Below, piece after piece: positions 4,932 to 27,552 of a stretch of 64,000 nucleotides of DNA; the stretch's first letter is position 1, and each line of letters begins with the position of its first letter. Both the position numbers and the translations under genes were made by a program. The notes beneath the pieces were generated by a model. The model did no database searches. It worked only from the letters and a program-made list of their open reading frames with translations, and was not told the DNA's origin. Origin of the DNA: Roseobacter sp. (lineage in GTDB: Bacteria; Pseudomonadota; Alphaproteobacteria; Rhodobacterales; Rhodobacteraceae); assembly GCA_015665415.1 (NCBI GenBank), contig JADFAE010000005.1, positions 62,001 to 126,000 on the forward strand. The letters run 5' to 3'.

Positions 4932-6668
4932 GTGCGAGGGCTGGTACGGGGACTGTTGTGGGGGCTGAAATGGCTGTTGGGGATCTTGTTGCTGGCGGGC
5001 GGTGTTGGCTGGTATCTGCTGCGACCTGAGGTGGTGCCCGCTCAGCTGGTGCTCACCGGGGGCGAGATCATCACCATGGCCCCAGGTGCAACAGATGCGC
5101 CCGAAGCGATCCTGATCACAGACGGGGTAATCACTGCAATTGGCAGCCTGGCGGAGCTCAGCGCCAGCGGTGCGCCGGTGCATGATCTCGGCGGCCAAGT
5201 GCTGACGCCTGGGTTGATCGAGCCGCATACCCATCCCATTGCCACGGCCTTGTTGGGTGCGGTGGTGGATATCAGCGGCTTTACCCATGCCAGCCGCGCA
5301 CAGGTGATGCAGAGCCTGCGGGATGCAGCGGACAGGACCGCGCTCACCCCCTGGCTGGTGGCCTATGGTTGGGATCCGGTGGCGATTGCCGATCTGGACC
5401 CGCCGACGCTGGCAGAGCTGGACGCGATTTCGCCCGACCGACCCCTGGTGGTGATCACCCAGATGCTGCATGAGGTCTATGCCAACAGTGCCGCCATGCG
5501 GGCGGCCGGCATTGCGCTGGTTTCAAACACATCGGTCGAAGGGGTGATCCGCGACGCCCAAGGACGCGCCACCGGAGGTTTTCGCGAGTTGGCGGCGGTC
5601 AACAGCATCCTGGGGGCGATGCCGACGGCAGATCCCGCTCTGGTCGAGCTGCTGGTGCGCAAGACCTATGCCGATTACGCCCGTGCGGGTTATACCAGTA
5701 TCGGCATCACCGGGGCTGTGGGCAAACATGCCGATCCGGTTGGCCTGTTGCGCCATATCGGCGCCAGCGATGCGCCGCTGCGGGCCTATCTCTATCTGTT
5801 GCCAGATCAGGAGGAACCGCTGGGCGGGAGTGATGATTTTCGCATTCTGGGCCGCAAATTCTGGATGGATGGCTCACCCTTTACCGGCGGCGCCGCTTTT
5901 GCCGCCCCCTATGAACACAGTGACCTGACCACCCAGCGGATGCATCTGCCCCATGGGCATATTGGGCCGCTGACCCATGCGGCGGAGGATTTTGCCAAAA
6001 ACCTTAGCCGCTTGCAGGCAGAGGGCCATCAGATCGCGGTTCATGTGCAGGGCGAACGTGCCATTGATCATGTTCTGGACGCCTTTGAGGCCGCAGGTCC
6101 CCCCAAAGGCCTATCGCATCGGCTGGAGCACAATGCCCTGATCACCGAAGCGCAGATTGTGCGGGCAAAAAACCTGGGCCTCAGCCTCGGTTTTTTTGTC
6201 GATCATATCTACTACTACGGTGATGCCTTGCCCGATATCGTCGGAGACCGCGCCAATCGCTACATGCCGGTGGGTACAGCGGTTGCGGCCGGGGTGGTGA
6301 CCACCCTTCATGGCGACCATCCCGCCTCTCCTATTGATCCGTTGCGCACATTGCGGGTGGCAGTGGAGCGCGGTTCGGTTTCTGGCCAGACCCGCACGGC
6401 ACCGGATCAGGCCATCAGCCGTGCGCAGGCCTTGAAGGCCATGACGCTGGATGCGGCGCGGCAATTGGGGCAGGGGGATCTGATCGGCTCGATCGAAGTG
6501 GGCAAACGCGCTGATTTCACCCTGTTTGAGGGCAACCCTCTGACAGGTGACTGGTCAGATCTGGCGGTGACAGGCACCTGGAAACAGGGCCAGCCCGTGC
6601 ATCTGGGGTTGACCAGCTGGCTGCGACTTGGCCCTGCCTGGGCCGCGGCCAAGGCCATGGTGTTCTAG
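4932..6668 (+). CDS. Membrane-anchored amidohydrolase (YtcJ-like)
   Basis: 578 residues with a GTG start preceded by GGGGGAGAG. An N-terminal hydrophobic segment (about residues 8-26, LWGLKWLLGILLLAGGVGWY) predicts a signal anchor, so the catalytic domain should be periplasmic. The amidohydrolase barrel follows: GGEIITMAPG, LTPGLIEPHTHP (metal-binding HxH), a Lys/Trp-rich region near WMDGSPFTGG, AVHVQGERAID, LEHNALI, LHGDHPASPIDP and the C-terminal GKRADFTLFEGNP. YtcJ-type enzymes hydrolyse amide-like bonds of unknown substrates. The gene ends in TAG, showing that TAG acts as a normal stop in this genome. Confidence 0.88.
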   Translation: MRGLVRGLLWGLKWLLGILLLAGGVGWYLLRPEVVPAQLVLTGGEIITMAPGATDAPEAILITDGVITAIGSLAELSASGAPVHDLGGQVLTPGLIEPHTHPIATALLGAVVDISGFTHASRAQVMQSLRDAADRTALTPWLVAYGWDPVAIADLDPPTLAELDAISPDRPLVVITQMLHEVYANSAAMRAAGIALVSNTSVEGVIRDAQGRATGGFRELAAVNSILGAMPTADPALVELLVRKTYADYARAGYTSIGITGAVGKHADPVGLLRHIGASDAPLRAYLYLLPDQEEPLGGSDDFRILGRKFWMDGSPFTGGAAFAAPYEHSDLTTQRMHLPHGHIGPLTHAAEDFAKNLSRLQAEGHQIAVHVQGERAIDHVLDAFEAAGPPKGLSHRLEHNALITEAQIVRAKNLGLSLGFFVDHIYYYGDALPDIVGDRANRYMPVGTAVAAGVVTTLHGDHPASPIDPLRTLRVAVERGSVSGQTRTAPDQAISRAQALKAMTLDAARQLGQGDLIGSIEVGKRADFTLFEGNPLTGDWSDLAVTGTWKQGQPVHLGLTSWLRLGPAWAAAKAMVF

Positions 6669-21417: not shown

Positions 21418-21900
21418 ATGGAATATGATCTGATCCTGCGCTGGCTGCATGTTCTGGGCGCCTGCACCCTGTTGGGGACAGGGGCGGGCATCGCCTTTTT
21501 CATGCTGATGGCGCATCGCAGTGGAGATCCGCGCATTGTTGCGCATACGGCGGGAATCGTGGTCCTGGCAGATCTGGTTTTCACCACTTCTGCTGTGCTG
21601 ATACAGCCTGTGACCGGTGCCTTGCTGGCCTGGGAGCTGGGCTGGAGCCTCTGGGAGGGCTGGATCCTGCTGTCGCTGGTGCTCTATGTTCTGACCGGGG
21701 CATTTTGGTTGCCGGTGGTCTGGATCCAATTGCGCCTGCGCAATCTTGCACAGGCGGCCATGGCAGAGGGGCGAGAGCTGTGCCCAGGCTATCACCAGCT
21801 GTTTCGGATCTGGTTTGCCTGCGGGTTTCCCGCCTTTGCCGCCGTGCTGGCCATCGTCTGGCTGATGTTGGCGCGACCTGACATCGCCTGGTCGCCCTAG
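21418..21900 (+). CDS. DUF2269 family integral membrane protein
   Basis: 160 residues with four hydrophobic segments: WLHVLGACTLLGTGAGIAFF, IVVLADLVFTTSAVLIQPVT, GWILLSLVLYVLTGAFWLPV and FAAVLAIVWLMLARP. The start WLHVLGA is typical of DUF2269. It begins 1 base after the SDR-DoxX stop, so the two form an operon. Function is unknown. It ends in TAG followed by a strong hairpin. Confidence 0.88.
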   Translation: MEYDLILRWLHVLGACTLLGTGAGIAFFMLMAHRSGDPRIVAHTAGIVVLADLVFTTSAVLIQPVTGALLAWELGWSLWEGWILLSLVLYVLTGAFWLPVVWIQLRLRNLAQAAMAEGRELCPGYHQLFRIWFACGFPAFAAVLAIVWLMLARPDIAWSP

Positions 21901-21904
21901 GGTC

Positions 21905-21934
21905 GGTCGCAGCAGGGTTTATCCCGCTGCGACC
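21905..21934. terminator. Hairpin between convergent genes
   Basis: GGTCGCAGC pairs with GCTGCGACC, extended by GGG/CCC across a one-base bulge with a 5-base loop. It lies between the DUF2269 stop and the stop of the minus-strand amber-containing gene, so it may end transcription from both sides. Confidence 0.7.
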
Positions 21935-21946
21935 AAAGAGAAAGCC

Positions 21947-24226
21947 TCAGGCCGCCCGATTGACATACCAGCTTCTGAAGGTGTCGTGATAGGCGGACCC
22001 GACAAGAGTTTTGGCGGATTTCATGATCTCATCCCATATCTCGTCATCAATCTGTTGCGTCATTTCAAAGCACTGAGTGATTTGATTTCTCAACCCGTGA
22101 CTTAGATTGACTTCCAGATCGGCCCCGCGTCTGAGGAACTTGTTGTAAATGCCCGCCGTTCTTGTCGTCGGATGGGGGTCTTTTTCGAGGATCTCATAAA
22201 GAAAAACACTCTCCACAAAAAATTGCTCTTTTGCACATTGTTTGAATAAGGGGCCAAGTTCTTTGTCTTTGAGAACCTTGAACCCGGACGCTTTGGAATA
22301 TTTCGACAAAGCCTGTTTTCTGCGTTCTTGTTCCGCCTCAGGCACTTCTTTCGCACCAACAAGATTGGATCTGAATGCAGCATCTCTGTTTTCATATTCC
22401 TCGGTCTCGATGGTGCCGCCATCAGGCAGAACAAAGCTTCGGATCTTGGCGGCCTTGTCGCGCACGGCAGTCATCAGGTGTTTGGTCAGAAGATCCCTTG
22501 TGTCTTCCTGAAACATCGTCGACGAGCTGTCGAAGGTTTTGGTCGCAGCGGTGTGGATCTGTTTCAGATGCGTTAGAGACGTCTTGCGCGCAGCAGCGCC
22601 TTCTTCTTGCGACATGCCAACGCTCATCCAGTCCAGCGAGTCTTCGTAGTCCTGCAAAGCTTTTTCCAGGTTTCCGGTATCGCGGACAAAACGGCCCTTG
22701 TTTTTCTTCCACCAGGCTGCGGTCAAGGCAAAGCTGTCAACAACACGGCGCGGGATGATATGCGCGTCGGGATCGACCTCCTTGAACAGTTTTTCCAGCC
22801 CTGAGCGCTTGTTTTCCACCAGCCGGATCAAGGCCTTCAGGTTGGCCATGGATGTTTTTTGCGTCGCAGAGTTGCAGGCCTTATGCGAGTAGGTGGCGGC
22901 CTGGTGAACGTCGTCAATTTTCTTTGCGGCATTGTTCAGCTTAATCAGCCGGTCGCTGCGGTCATTGCCCTCGGCGCGACGGGCCTCTTCCCAGGCGGCC
23001 TCCCAGGCCAGCAGCGCGGCGTGCAGCTTGAACTTATCTTTGCCGACGTCTCCGGTTCTTGGCTTGTTTTTCTTCCACCAATCCGCACTGAGTTCTGCCT
23101 TGCCGCCGCTGCCGCTCTCTTCCTCTGCGCCGGGCGGGACTAGTCCGGCCGGAAAATCGGGGTTTGCCGGGAGCTCCTTGGCGACCGATTTTCTTTCCAG
23201 TTCCATTTTTTTGATCAACTCCTGGAGTAAGACTTTGGAGTGTTCGGTATCGGCAGAGGCGCAGATCTTCACGGTCAACCCGGCTGCTTCAATTGCCGTT
23301 TCCAGCTGATAGTTTAGGTAGCTAAAATACTCGAACCGTTTGGGATCCTTCTTGGGGGCCGCCTAGTTGTTCAATTCTTCAAATTGCGTCAGCGCCTCAA
23401 TCAACTTGCCTTGAGGCTTCACGCTTTCGTGCAGATTTTTCTTAGCCCAGACCGCGGAAATTTCCGGTGTGACCTTGTGCTTTTGCACCTTGCGATCATC
23501 CCCCACTGCCGTGTCCGGCGAGGCATAGCGGAGCTTGGCTTCTAAATCGATTTTCTTCTTCTTCGCCAGCAGAGCCAAGTCTTTCAGCTACGTCATCGTG
23601 CGTTTCTGTGTCACCGTGTTGGCGGATTTGATGTTCATTGCGGCGGCTCGGATCACCAGATCCAACGCTTTCAGCGTCTCATCAAGCCTGACAGCCAGGT
23701 CAGGGCCTTTGGTTGCGGCTGTCAGCTCAAGCTTCTTTTCATAGGCTTTCAAGCATAGATCCAGCTTGGCCTTGTCGGTGAAATGGTCGCCGTTGACGGC
23801 TTTCCACCACTTGGCGGAAATGAGCACTTTTGCCGTGTCGGCGGTATCCTCGAGCCGTTTCTTGATGATATTGACCGAAAGCGGGTATTGCTTTTGGGCC
23901 TGCACCTTTTCGGTTTTGACCGTGGAAATCAGCGTTTCCAGATCGCTCTTGGTTTCCTTGTGCAGCGGACCGCAGTTCTTTTGCAGTTTTTGCGCTGCAA
24001 TCATGACATCGTCGATGGCTCGATAAAGGCTCTCCGTCGCCTCCAGTGCCTGATCAAATCTGCGATCTTCCTGGTCGCTCAAGTGTCCTTTGAGCCTGTC
24101 AAAATCCTTCTTTTGAGTTTCGTAAAACTCCAGCGGCTATAAAAGATCCTTGGCACCCTTCAGCATTTTTGGCTGGTTGGTCTGCCACCACTTTTTTGTG
24201 ACGTCTACTTTGGTCCTCGCTGGCAT
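21947..24226 (-). pseudogene. Multi-module helical protein with an RGS-like C-terminus, interrupted by three in-frame TAG codons
   Basis: From ATG 24226 (AAGGAC upstream) a single frame runs 760 codons to TGA. It has TAG at codons 30 (24137-24139), 213 (23588-23590) and 288 (23363-23365), and no frameshift. About five degenerate 95-100-residue modules begin with TKKWWQTN, SAKWWKAV, SAVWAKKN, SADWWKKNK and TAAWWKKNK; each is helical and charged, with a TQK..M..LK-type motif near its end. The last ~115 residues resemble an RGS domain (IYNKFLRRGADLEVNL, YHDTFRSW). The second TAG aligns with Asn in a later module. The uninterrupted 3' part (codons 289-759) could still be made from an internal start such as ATG 23206. 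Base composition is visibly less GC-rich than the flanks, suggesting transfer. Either a recent pseudogene or amber readthrough; I cannot decide. Confidence 0.7.
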
Positions 24227-24633
24227 TTTATGTCCTTCAAATTGGCTGTCGTGTATGATTCCTGCTTTGAAAATTCAGTCTGAATCTGGTTGAGTGGTGT
24301 TAACGATTTGGAAACCAAATTTGATGTTTTCAAGTGTGTCGAACCAAATTTGGCTTCCAGCGGGGGTCAGTCCCAGCGCTAAATTGCTGTGGCTATTGCC
24401 GAAATATTCCGCATGCTTCAGGATTATTCGCGTTGATAATTTACTCTGTCGCGAGCGCTTTACCCCGGCGCAAGTGCAGCCTATAACGCTGCCATGTCCC
24501 ACCGTGCGGCCATCATTATTCGAATTATATCCCCGGCGCTCTGATAGCACGAGCCGCCGGGCAAAGGCGCTTGAGCCATCGCGCCGAACCGAATACTCCC
24601 AGATCTGAACCGAACATCCAAAGGACGCCACCC
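24227..24633. promoter_or_regulatory. Divergent spacer between the amber-containing gene and ileS
   Basis: A 407-base region with no supported ORF, AT-rich in its left half. It holds a direct repeat AACCAAATTTG at 24313-24323 and 24342-24352. The second copy lies within the palindrome CCAAATTTGG (24344-24353). Both are on the side of the minus-strand gene. No tRNA-sensing T-box is apparent for ileS. Confidence 0.4.
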
Positions 24634-27552
24634 ATGTGCGCCGACACTGCTGATACCCCTGAGTACAAACAGACCCTGAACCTGCCCAAAACCGACTTTC
24701 CGATGCGCGCGGGCCTGCCCAAGCGTGAGCCCGCCTGGCTGGAGCGTTGGGCCAAGATCGGCGTCTATGACCGGCTGCGCGAAACCAGCCAGGACCGCAC
24801 GCCCTTTGTGCTGCATGACGGACCACCCTATGCCAACGGTCATCTGCACATTGGCCATGCGCTGAACAAGACCATCAAGGACATGATCGTGCGCAGCCAT
24901 CAGATGATGGGGTTTGACGCGCGCTATGTGCCGGGTTGGGATTGCCACGGGCTGCCGATCGAGTGGAAGATCGAAGAGCAGTATCGCAAGAAGGGCAAAA
25001 ACAAGGACGCAGTGGATGTGGTGGAGTTCCGCCAGGAATGCCGCGCCTTTGCCGACAAATGGGTCGATATCCAGCGTGAAGAATTCAAACGCCTGGGCAT
25101 CACCGGCAACTGGGCCGATCCTTACCTCACCATGAACTACCACGCTGAGGCGGTGATCGCGGCTGAGTTCCAGAAGTTCCTGATGAACGGCACGCTGTAT
25201 CAGGGCTCCAAACCCGTCATGTGGTCGCCGGTTGAGAAAACCGCCCTGGCCGAGGCCGAGGTGGAATACAAGGACAAGGAAAGCTTTACCATCTGGGTGA
25301 AGTTTGCAGTCTCGGGCGCAGGTGATGACCTGAACGGGGCCAGCGTCGTGATCTGGACCACCACCCCCTGGACCATTCCGTCGAACCAGGCGGTGGTCTA
25401 CGGCGACAGCTTTGACTACGGCCTCTATGAGGTCACCGACACGCCGGAAGAATGCTGGGCCGCCAAGGGCGATCGCTTCCTTTTGGCTGACAAGCTGGCG
25501 GGCGATGTCTTCAAACGTGCCCGTCTGGATGAGGGGCAATATACCCGTGTCCGCGCCGTGCCTGCGGATGAATTGGCGACACTGCAGCTGAGCCACCCGC
25601 TGGCCGGGGCCGAAGGGTCTAACGGCGAATGGGATGCTCCGCGTGATTTCCGCGCCGCCCCTTTTGTGACCGACGAGGAAGGCACCGGATTTGTGCACTG
25701 CGCGCCGAGCCACGGGATGGAGGAATTCGAGCTCTACCGTGATCTGGGCATGTTGGAGCAGGTCATCACCTATAACGTCATGGATGATGGCGGCTTTCGC
25801 GCCGATCTGCCCTTCTTTGGCGGCACATACATCCTCAACCGCAAGGGCGGTGAGGGCGATGCCAACAAAAAGATCATCGACAAGCTGGTCGAGGTTGGCG
25901 GCCTTCTGGCGCGCGGCAAGATCAAGCACAGCTACCCACATTCCTGGCGCTCCAAGGCACCGATCATCTACCGCAACACGCCGCAGTGGTTTGCCTCTGT
26001 GGATCGCGCGGTGGGCGATGGTCAGGACGAGATGGGCACAACCATCCGCGAGCGCGCCCTGCGTTCCATCGACGAACTGGTGAAATGGACGCCCCAACGC
26101 GGCCGCAACCGGTTGCATTCGATGATTGAAAGCCGCCCCGACTGGGTGCTGTCGCGCCAGCGCGCCTGGGGCGTGCCGCTGACCTGCTTTGTCAAAAAGG
26201 GTCTGCTGCCCACGGATGAGGGCTTTATCCTGCGCGACGATGCCGTGAATGCGCGCATCGTTGCGGCCTTTGAGGTCGAGGGCGCTGACGCCTGGTATGC
26301 CGACGGGGCCAAGGAGCGCTTCCTTGGCGAGGGCTACAACGCCGATGAATGGGACCAGGTCTTTGACGTGCTCGACGTCTGGTTTGATTCTGGCTCCACC
26401 CATGCATTCGTGCTGCGCGACCGCGAGGATGGCACGGCGGACGGGATTGCCGATGTCTACATGGAAGGCACCGATCAACACCGTGGCTGGTTCCACTCGT
26501 CGCTGTTGCAGGCCTGTGGTACCAAAGGCCGCGCGCCTTATAAAAACGTTGTCACCCACGGCTTTACCCTGGATGGCAAAGGCAACAAGATGTCCAAATC
26601 CTTGGGCAACACCATCGTGCCAGAGGAGATCGTCAAACAATATGGCGCCGATATCCTGCGGCTCTGGGTGGCGCAGACCGACTATACCTCGGACCAGCGC
26701 ATCGGCCCTGAAATCCTGAAAGGCACCGCCGACAGCTATCGCCGGTTGCGCAATACCATGCGCTACATGCTGGGCTCTCTGCATGACTTCAGCGAAGATC
26801 AGCGCGTGGCTGCTGACGAGATGCCCGAGCTGGAGCAATGGGTGCTGCACCGTCTGGCGGAGCTGGATCACCAGGTGCGCGTGGGCTATCAGGCCTTTGA
26901 TTTCAACGGTGTCTGGCAGGCGATCTTTACCTTTGCCACCGTCGATCTCTCGGCCTTCTACTTTGATGTGCGCAAGGATGCGCTGTATTGTGATGGCGAT
27001 ACTGCCAATGCGCGTGCGGCGCGCACCGTGCTCGACATCCTGTTCCACCGCCTCACCACCTGGCTGGCACCAATCCTGGTCTTCACCATGGAAGAGGTCT
27101 GGCTGGAGCGTTTCCCCGGTGATGACAGCTCGGTACACCTGACCGATATCCCGGACACGCCCGCCGATTGGCTGAATGAGCCGCTGGCCGCCAAATGGAG
27201 CCAGATCCGTCAGGCCCGCCGGGTGGTGACTGCCGCGCTCGAGGTGCAGCGCACCGACAAGGTGATCGGGGCCTCGCTGGAGGCGCATCCGGTGGTGCAT
27301 GTGCGTGACGCGGTGGCGCTAGAGGCGCTGAAATCGGTGAATTTTGCCGATCTCTGCATCACTTCCGACATCACTCTCACCGGTGACCCGGCCCCGGATG
27401 AGGCCTTCCGCATGCCCGAGGTCGACGGCATTTCGGTGGTCTTTGAAAAGGCCGAAGGAGAGAAATGTCAGCGCTGCTGGAAGATCCTGCCCGATGTCGG
27501 CCAGCATGCCCATGCAGGTGTCTGCGGACGCTGTAATGACGCGCTGAGCTGA
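24634..27552 (+). CDS. ileS: Isoleucyl-tRNA synthetase
   Basis: 972 residues, class I synthetase. The HIGH motif is in PYANGHLHIGHALNK and the KMSKS motif in GKGNKMSKSLGN. The editing (CP1) domain is present (VIWTTTPWTIPSNQA, GTGFVHCAPSHGMEEF). The C-terminal zinc finger has CQRCWKILP and CGRCNDALS. It charges tRNA-Ile with isoleucine and edits valine. ATG 24634 follows AAGGACG. A strong terminator follows the stop. Confidence 0.98.
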   Translation: MCADTADTPEYKQTLNLPKTDFPMRAGLPKREPAWLERWAKIGVYDRLRETSQDRTPFVLHDGPPYANGHLHIGHALNKTIKDMIVRSHQMMGFDARYVPGWDCHGLPIEWKIEEQYRKKGKNKDAVDVVEFRQECRAFADKWVDIQREEFKRLGITGNWADPYLTMNYHAEAVIAAEFQKFLMNGTLYQGSKPVMWSPVEKTALAEAEVEYKDKESFTIWVKFAVSGAGDDLNGASVVIWTTTPWTIPSNQAVVYGDSFDYGLYEVTDTPEECWAAKGDRFLLADKLAGDVFKRARLDEGQYTRVRAVPADELATLQLSHPLAGAEGSNGEWDAPRDFRAAPFVTDEEGTGFVHCAPSHGMEEFELYRDLGMLEQVITYNVMDDGGFRADLPFFGGTYILNRKGGEGDANKKIIDKLVEVGGLLARGKIKHSYPHSWRSKAPIIYRNTPQWFASVDRAVGDGQDEMGTTIRERALRSIDELVKWTPQRGRNRLHSMIESRPDWVLSRQRAWGVPLTCFVKKGLLPTDEGFILRDDAVNARIVAAFEVEGADAWYADGAKERFLGEGYNADEWDQVFDVLDVWFDSGSTHAFVLRDREDGTADGIADVYMEGTDQHRGWFHSSLLQACGTKGRAPYKNVVTHGFTLDGKGNKMSKSLGNTIVPEEIVKQYGADILRLWVAQTDYTSDQRIGPEILKGTADSYRRLRNTMRYMLGSLHDFSEDQRVAADEMPELEQWVLHRLAELDHQVRVGYQAFDFNGVWQAIFTFATVDLSAFYFDVRKDALYCDGDTANARAARTVLDILFHRLTTWLAPILVFTMEEVWLERFPGDDSSVHLTDIPDTPADWLNEPLAAKWSQIRQARRVVTAALEVQRTDKVIGASLEAHPVVHVRDAVALEALKSVNFADLCITSDITLTGDPAPDEAFRMPEVDGISVVFEKAEGEKCQRCWKILPDVGQHAHAGVCGRCNDALS

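What the first reader, a model, noticed from the sequence alone, without database searches (positions are those of the whole stretch)
21947..24226. A 760-codon gene interrupted only by three in-frame TAG codons
The three TAGs (codons 30, 213, 288) lie in one unbroken frame with no frameshift and no internal TGA or TAA, and the gene ends in TGA. The sequence on either side of each TAG continues the same repeat modules. TAG ends several normal genes here (the genes ending at 6668, 13608, 21900, 39034, 47413 and 50048), so whole-genome recoding is unlikely. Possible explanations are recent C-to-T nonsense mutations at CAG codons, or local amber readthrough.
Basis: partly seen in the sequence, partly recalled or inferred. 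Interest (0 to 1): 0.85.

Follow-up and report, generated by a model that had tools for sequence, protein, structure and literature searches.

The report
Broken foreign gene with secretion-linked repeats
A bacterium carries an acquired gene, probably broken by three stop codons, built from five copies of an uncatalogued domain whose relatives often sit beside genes for a molecular syringe, and ending in what looks like a eukaryotic signalling domain.

Summary
In detail: on the MINUS strand, 24226 to 21947, one frame of 759 codons is cut only by TAG at codons 30, 213 and 288. Recoding is unsupported: release factor 1 is present and no CUA-anticodon tRNA was found (tRNA set incomplete, pyrrolysine genes not searched). 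The gene fills a roughly 2.4 kb low-GC insertion between DUF2269 and ileS and was not found in the 11 other held genomes of its genus. Best reading: a gained gene, now a pseudogene; its last 471 codons stay open. What it was is the news: five tandem copies of a ~105-aa "WWKKNK" domain with no convincing Pfam or NCBIfam match, then an RGS-like C-terminus just at Pfam's cut-off. Relatives usually carry one copy near the N-terminus, directly behind clpV of type VI secretion clusters in 4 of 8 other carriers of the family; 9 of 9 carrier genomes have TssF, against 11 of 48 controls (p = 1.9e-5). In one planctomycete a domain gene neighbours two RasGAP-like genes. So it looks like a decayed T6SS-linked protein, perhaps an effector aimed at eukaryotes; secretion and RGS function are inferred, not shown.

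The parts
21947..24226 (-). the interrupted gene, ATG to TGA, 759 codons
24233..24237 (-). AAGGA ribosome-binding-site-like sequence, 6 nt before the ATG
24137..24139 (-). TAG, codon 30 (inside module 1)
23588..23590 (-). TAG, codon 213 (inside module 2)
23363..23365 (-). TAG, codon 288 (inside module 3)
23882..24208 (-). WW module 1 (WW at residues 13-14 from the ATG)
23513..23824 (-). WW module 2
23156..23464 (-). WW module 3 (WA in place of WW)
22766..23095 (-). WW module 4
22421..22732 (-). WW module 5
21983..22198 (-). RGS-like stretch (PF00615 positions 37-106 of 117)
   Evidence: E 5.8e-5, 23.9 bits against a cut-off of 23.9 on the isolated 151-aa piece; 20.9 bits in the 471-aa context
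21947..23362 (-). last uninterrupted piece, 471 codons plus stop: end of module 3, modules 4-5, RGS-like region; possible internal ATG at codon 341
21901..24455 (.). lineage-specific insertion (outer limits) between DUF2269 gene and ileS; GC 51.7% against 61.2% for the rest of the window
21418..21900 (+). left neighbour, DUF2269 membrane protein, ends in TAG, convergent with the gene
24634..27552 (+). right neighbour, ileS (class-I tRNA synthetase domains and the IleRS/FPG zinc finger by Pfam)

Best explanation
This is a horizontally gained gene, now most likely a pseudogene. It entered between the DUF2269 gene and ileS in this lineage and encoded a T6SS-linked, probably helical repeat protein: five tandem copies of a domain that elsewhere mostly stands once, near the N-terminus, in genes beside or co-occurring with type VI secretion systems, followed by an RGS-like C-terminal domain. 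By analogy with MIX, FIX, RIX and WHIX proteins, the likely original role was as secreted cargo or adaptor: WW domains dock to the T6SS tube or spike and the C-terminal domain acts in the target cell, an RGS-like domain pointing to eukaryotic G-protein signalling in a predator or host. In this genome, translation from the natural start stops after 29 residues. Shown: frame, stops, insertion, module homology, T6SS co-occurrence. Inferred: gain rather than loss elsewhere, loss of function, secretion, docking, RGS activity, target.
For: Three in-frame TAGs, the first after 29 residues. RF1 present; no CUA tRNA seen. Insertion: DUF2269-ileS distance 276 and 331 bp in the two of five genus relatives with DUF2269 that show ileS within the fetched flank, 2733 bp here. 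Gene GC 52.4%, below every other 2.28-kb slice of the window sampled (minimum 57.2%). Homologues of the domain are open: no internal stop in any listed match outside this gene. T6SS link: family carriers found with profile A1, built before any T6SS context was known; gene directly behind clpV in 4 of 8 other carriers of the family (G381, G440, G316, G280), on the T6SS contig in a fifth (G315); TssF in 9 of 9 carriers against 11 of 48 non-carriers tested, p = 1.9e-5, and 8 of 8 without the own genome, p = 5.3e-5. The own genome has a T6SS of the same type. RGS: E 5.8e-5; a reversed copy and seven shuffles gave no RGS match and nothing better than 0.044; the only PDB sequence match up to E 10, weak (E 0.15), is EhRGS-RhoGEF. 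Two RasGAP-like genes lie beside a WW gene in planctomycete G735, with a TssF gene about 16 kb away.
Against: No intact full-length orthologue was found in what was searched, so decay is not shown by comparison. No frameshift, TGA or TAA has accumulated and all stops lie in the first 38% of the gene, leaving a 471-codon 3' part open, which could mean it is still used. The RGS match only just reaches Pfam's cut-off as an isolated piece cut by hand and falls below it in context; the AlphaFold model of the last piece was poor (mean pLDDT 46; 10-residue means of 28-44 over the RGS part) and says only that it is helical. This gene is on another contig than the T6SS cluster, and three of the eight other family carriers also have it elsewhere. 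Carriers are related to one another, and only 48 of 385 family non-carriers were tested, so the p-value overstates independence.
Confidence: 0.62

Rival explanations
1. The gene was split rather than killed: the last 471-codon open piece (modules 4-5 plus the RGS-like domain) is still expressed from an internal start and works as a shorter protein.
For: All stops fall before codon 289 of 759; an in-frame ATG at codon 341 has GGAG 12 nt upstream, ahead of module 4; one-module relatives are common.
Against: The spacing is long for a ribosome site, and it is the only start after the third TAG that passed the scan (at least 4 nt of the ribosome-site core, codons 32-500); no promoter evidence (3 promoter-like sites in the region against 1.4 by chance); the distance from start codon to WW seen in many relatives would be lost.
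Confidence: 0.15
2. Local amber readthrough or a suppressor tRNA makes the full-length protein.
For: Only TAG interrupts the frame and no indel has accumulated.
Against: RF1 present; no CUA tRNA among those found; TAG ends six normal genes of the window; the homologous domains use no TAG in the listed matches; three TAGs by chance has p about 0.10. The tRNA list is incomplete (no Tyr or Ile tRNA seen in this 40-contig assembly) and pyrrolysine genes were not searched.
Confidence: 0.05
3. Sequencing or assembly error: the gene is intact in the real organism.
For: Assembly errors do create false internal stops (PMC11017572, abstract seen).
Against: Three separate substitutions, all TAG, in one gene without indels; the flanking genes scanned are open; completeness 100 and contamination 0.58. 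Raw reads were not available.
Confidence: 0.07
4. The WW domain is not a delivery domain but an accessory or structural part of this T6SS type, and the window gene was an offshoot of such a part with no target-cell role.
For: The four clpV-adjacent WW proteins are alike beyond the WW domain (37-47% identity to the L086 protein over 271-523 residues), which fits a conserved part as well as an effector; the own T6SS has at that place a 415-aa gene that resembles the later, not the WW, part (23-37% over 75-252 residues).
Against: Six other loci aligned with the L086 protein only over 29-104 residues and the carrier proteins run from 239 to 1552 aa, so the rest of the protein varies; the domain is sporadic (9 of 394 family genomes) and was not found in the 20-kb stretch of the own, colinear T6SS cluster, so the machine seems not to need it.
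Confidence: 0.3

Closest known systems
FIX, RIX and WHIX marker domains of T6SS cargo (PMC6688995 abstract and section 10 read; PMC10435454 and PMC12135965 passages seen); MIX as named in PMC10435454
   Same: Domain mostly near the N-terminus in front of unlike later parts; found in T6SS-positive genomes; genes often beside T6SS genes
   Different: No convincing Pfam or NCBIfam match, and not compared directly with these domains; found here in the window's family and in planctomycetes, whereas RIX is arginine-rich and confined to Vibrionaceae and Moritellaceae; five tandem copies in this gene; secretion untested
Eukaryotic RGS domain proteins (PF00615; EhRGS-RhoGEF, PDB 4gou, is the only PDB sequence match, E 0.15)
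   Same: Sequence match over profile positions 37-106 of 117
   Different: Bacterial, fused to WW modules, score only at the cut-off; structure and activity unknown
Bacterial pseudogene made by nonsense mutations
   Same: Low-GC, lineage-specific gene with several internal stops
   Different: No frameshift or deletion seen; long 3' frame open; no intact orthologue to compare with

Membership tests
T6SS marker/delivery domain (MIX/FIX/RIX/WHIX kind) | domain at or near the N-terminus of its proteins | tested here: met
   an ATG or GTG lies exactly 12 residues before WW in 11 of 19 homologous genes, as in the window gene; the others have one at 8-20 except L072, where the domain is internal. Starts are not annotated: in 10 of 19 the frame opens within about 35 codons of the domain, in the rest it runs further upstream (one weak match, L122, left out of the 19)
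T6SS marker/delivery domain (MIX/FIX/RIX/WHIX kind) | confined to genomes with a T6SS | tested here: met
   family carriers 9 of 9 against 11 of 48 controls; planctomycetes 3 of 4 carriers (the fourth, G497, is a weak match judged spurious) against 2 of 19
T6SS marker/delivery domain (MIX/FIX/RIX/WHIX kind) | encoded next to T6SS genes | tested here: inconclusive
   directly behind clpV in 4 of 8 other family carriers, same contig in a fifth, elsewhere in three and in the window
T6SS marker/delivery domain (MIX/FIX/RIX/WHIX kind) | necessary and sufficient for T6SS secretion | not testable with these tools
   needs a secretion assay
RIX domain | arginine-rich, 55 residues, Vibrionaceae/Moritellaceae only | tested here: not met
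   WW/Lys-rich domain of about 105 residues outside those families (definition from PMC10435454 passages)
RGS domain (PF00615) | score at or above Pfam's gathering cut-off | tested here: inconclusive
   23.9 against 23.9 as isolated 151-aa piece, 20.9 within the 471-aa piece
RGS domain (PF00615) | RGS helical fold | tested here: inconclusive
   model helical but low confidence (mean pLDDT 46); a second job for the domain alone never got a slot
RGS domain (PF00615) | stimulates GTP hydrolysis by a G-alpha protein | not testable with these tools
   needs a biochemical assay
TAG-recoded or amber-suppressed gene | tRNA with CUA anticodon | tested here: not met
   of 47 tRNA matches 44 typed by ARAGORN, two truncated ones read by eye, one weak match untyped; none of the 46 is CUA; pattern search negative; assembly lacks some tRNAs
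TAG-recoded or amber-suppressed gene | RF1 missing (whole-genome recoding) | tested here: not met
   prfA found at 481.5 bits, cut-off 423.25
TAG-recoded or amber-suppressed gene | pyrrolysine genes | not tested
Pseudogene | coding frame interrupted relative to intact relatives | tested here: inconclusive
   listed domain relatives are open, but no full-length orthologue was found to compare with

The most novel reading that the evidence does not exclude
The WW modules define an undescribed T6SS cargo/adaptor domain, shared by the Phaeobacter/Leisingera family and planctomycetes, that delivers GTPase-activating (GAP) domains of eukaryotic type, RGS here and perhaps RasGAP in planctomycetes, into eukaryotic cells; the window holds a five-module member caught in early decay, possibly still making its last two modules and RGS-like domain.
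Probability: 0.2. Interest if true: 0.85.

Novelty: new variant of a known kind. Interest (0 to 1): 0.5.

Why it matters
The stop codons themselves are probably ordinary decay. The domain they interrupt has no convincing match in Pfam or NCBIfam, is tied to type VI secretion in two phyla, and could be used, as FIX and RIX were, to look for unknown T6SS substrates. An RGS-like domain in a bacterium, and RasGAP-like genes beside a relative, would suggest that bacteria aim at eukaryotic GTPase signalling through T6SS; no paper on this appeared in the searches made here (listings and abstract starts only).

Tried and rejected
Whole-genome recoding and suppressor tRNA: rejected on RF1, tRNA and TAG-terminated genes. 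Phage or plasmid origin: no match of the whole frame in phages and plasmids, of the last piece in viral contigs, of the RGS-like piece in plasmids, nor of a relative's WW protein in plasmids. Weak Pfam hits to PEPcase, BAR, IFT57 and TT21 set aside as chance. A planctomycete hit in G497 (E 1.5e-4) sits in a protein that by eye has a signal peptide and TPR-like repeats; judged spurious, kept in the 3-of-4 count, and its genome has no TssF. T6SS genes near the window gene: none among the three neighbours scanned. The own T6SS stretch (L109) and those of nine genus relatives (L110-L118; 12.4-19.9 kb each) hold no WW domain. AlphaFold on the last piece with a three-row alignment: too poor for a fold search, so none was run. 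Controls: the 48 genomes G012-G059 are 48 of the 385 family non-carriers (G012-G030 are printed there as without match, the rest inferred from its tally and handle numbering); the 19 planctomycetes are 19 of 388 non-carriers. Seven of the eight shuffles made were given.

Full report
Observation. The gene lies on the minus strand, 24226 to 21947. Its 759 codons contain three TAGs (codons 30, 213, 288), no TAA, no TGA before the end, and no frameshift. It starts with ATG behind AAGGA. GC at codon positions is about 0.55, 0.38 and 0.65, similar in the three longer pieces. Its GC, 52.4%, is lower than any other 2.28-kb slice of the window sampled at 200-base steps (57.2-64.9%). A profile of homologue rows alone hits all four pieces of this gene and nothing else among 1587 six-frame pieces of the window (E 1.5e-22, 8.2e-12, 0.0026 and 0.0046), so each piece was once part of such a protein.

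Are the TAGs read? Nothing found supports it. The genome (40 contigs, 4.47 Mb) has RF1. Of 47 tRNA matches, ARAGORN typed 44, two truncated ones read as CAT by eye, and one weak match stayed untyped; none of the 46 is CUA. A pattern for a CTA-anticodon tRNA hit five places, of which one coincides with a tRNA, an Arg(tct) gene. The list is not complete: no Tyr or Ile tRNA was seen, and pyrrolysine genes were not searched. Six genes of the window with known family matches end in TAG. Three TAGs among three nonsense changes has a chance of about 0.10 given this gene's codons, so the all-TAG pattern needs no special cause.

Origin. The gene was not found in any of the other 11 held genomes of the genus or in the other 99 of 100 relatives searched (the sets overlap). 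Five genus relatives have DUF2269; two of them show the order DUF2269-ileS within the fetched flank, with 276 and 331 bp between the genes; here it is 2733 bp. So about 2.4 kb was gained in this lineage, or lost in the others; the base composition favours gain. No match in phages, plasmids or viral contigs for the queries tried.

Anatomy. The protein is five tandem copies of a domain of about 105 residues with the motif LSAxWWKKNK. Modules 2-5 are 18-26% identical to module 1, so the array is old and was presumably long kept in frame, while the stops must be younger. The C-terminal 151 residues match the RGS domain of Pfam (E 5.8e-5, 23.9 bits, exactly the cut-off; 20.9 bits in the longer piece). 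A reversed and seven shuffled versions gave no RGS match and nothing below E 0.044. The only PDB sequence match up to E 10 was EhRGS-RhoGEF at E 0.15. AlphaFold gave a helical but low-confidence model (mean pLDDT 46), which neither confirms nor excludes the RGS fold.

Relatives. A pattern-seeded search of 84,980 species genomes with the last piece gave a single relative, in a Planctomycetia MAG. A profile of the five modules and the two of that relative (A1) found 9 places in that genome, eight at E 1.7e-4 or better and a ninth at 0.04, and carriers in 9 of 394 genomes of the window's family, the own included. A wider profile (A2) found 4 of 392 genomes of the planctomycete's phylum, one of them judged spurious. 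The listed matches outside the window gene are in open frames. In 11 of 19 genes an ATG or GTG lies exactly 12 residues before the WW pair, as in the window gene; starts are not annotated, and in 9 of 19 the frame extends further upstream. The domain has no convincing Pfam or NCBIfam match (16 of 16 members of A2 scanned, at most one member per family, best E 0.0023 and 0.0033) and no PDB match better than E 0.029.

T6SS link. Annotating neighbours showed Hcp, ImpE, TssF, TssG and a ClpV-type ATPase followed directly by the WW gene in G381. The same place, directly after clpV, holds the WW gene in G440, G316 and G280. In G315 a 1552-aa WW protein lies near a phage-sheath-like gene, on the contig that also carries the T6SS about 22 kb away. 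Three other carriers have the gene elsewhere. TssF is present in 9 of 9 family carriers and 11 of 48 non-carriers tested (of 385; Fisher p = 1.9e-5; 5.3e-5 without the own genome), and in 3 of 4 planctomycete carriers against 2 of 19 tested non-carriers (p = 0.02; 3 of 3 and p = 0.006 if the spurious one is dropped). Relatedness was not corrected for. The own T6SS (L109) is colinear with these clusters, but behind clpV it has a 415-aa gene that resembles the later part of the WW proteins and lacks the WW domain.

GAP-type neighbours. In planctomycete G735 one WW gene lies in a row with a patatin-like gene, a 1289-aa gene without Pfam match, and two genes with RasGAP matches (E 4.5e-9, above the cut-off, and 7.1e-5, below it), with a TssF gene about 16 kb away. 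RGS and RasGAP are both GTPase-activating domains of eukaryotic signalling (recalled). No listed paper joined RGS domains with bacterial T6SS or described a bacterial RGS effector (listings and abstract starts only), nor RasGAP domains of bacteria with secretion (one listed paper, on another subject); subscription journals and preprints are not held.

Reading. By the logic used for FIX (more than 96% of carriers with T6SS, neighbours of T6SS genes; PMC6688995 section 10), the WW domain is a candidate T6SS marker domain. Secretion was not tested. The window gene is best read as a five-module, RGS-ended member of this set, acquired by a strain with a matching T6SS and then inactivated. Whether the 471-codon 3' piece is still used is open: all stops lie in the first 38% of the gene, and one ATG (codon 341) has a distant GGAG.

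Noticed in passing
L109 14768-16015 (own genome C18, T6SS cluster): The gene directly behind clpV in the own T6SS (415 aa) resembles the later part of the WW proteins at the same place in relatives but lacks the WW domain: apparent domain gain or loss at a fixed T6SS position.
   Followed up: partly
L133 13437-16531 (planctomycete G735): Two adjacent genes with RasGAP matches (one above, one below Pfam's cut-off) beside a WW-domain gene and a patatin-like gene, about 16 kb from a TssF gene.
   Followed up: partly
L086 10493-11353, L091 11422-12279, L109 16018-16938: Ion-channel genes (PF00520 in L086 and L091; the L109 gene is 75% identical to that of L086) lie within T6SS clusters, just after the clpV-adjacent genes.
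   Followed up: no
L088 4367-9025 and 185-2806 (G315): A 1552-aa WW-domain protein lies near a phage-tail-sheath-like gene and a BTAD regulator, hinting at a second contractile system on the same contig as the T6SS.
   Followed up: no
window 21907-21936: Inverted repeat GGTCGCAGC...GCTGCGACC between the convergent ends of the DUF2269 gene and this gene, seen by eye in the sequence.
   Followed up: no
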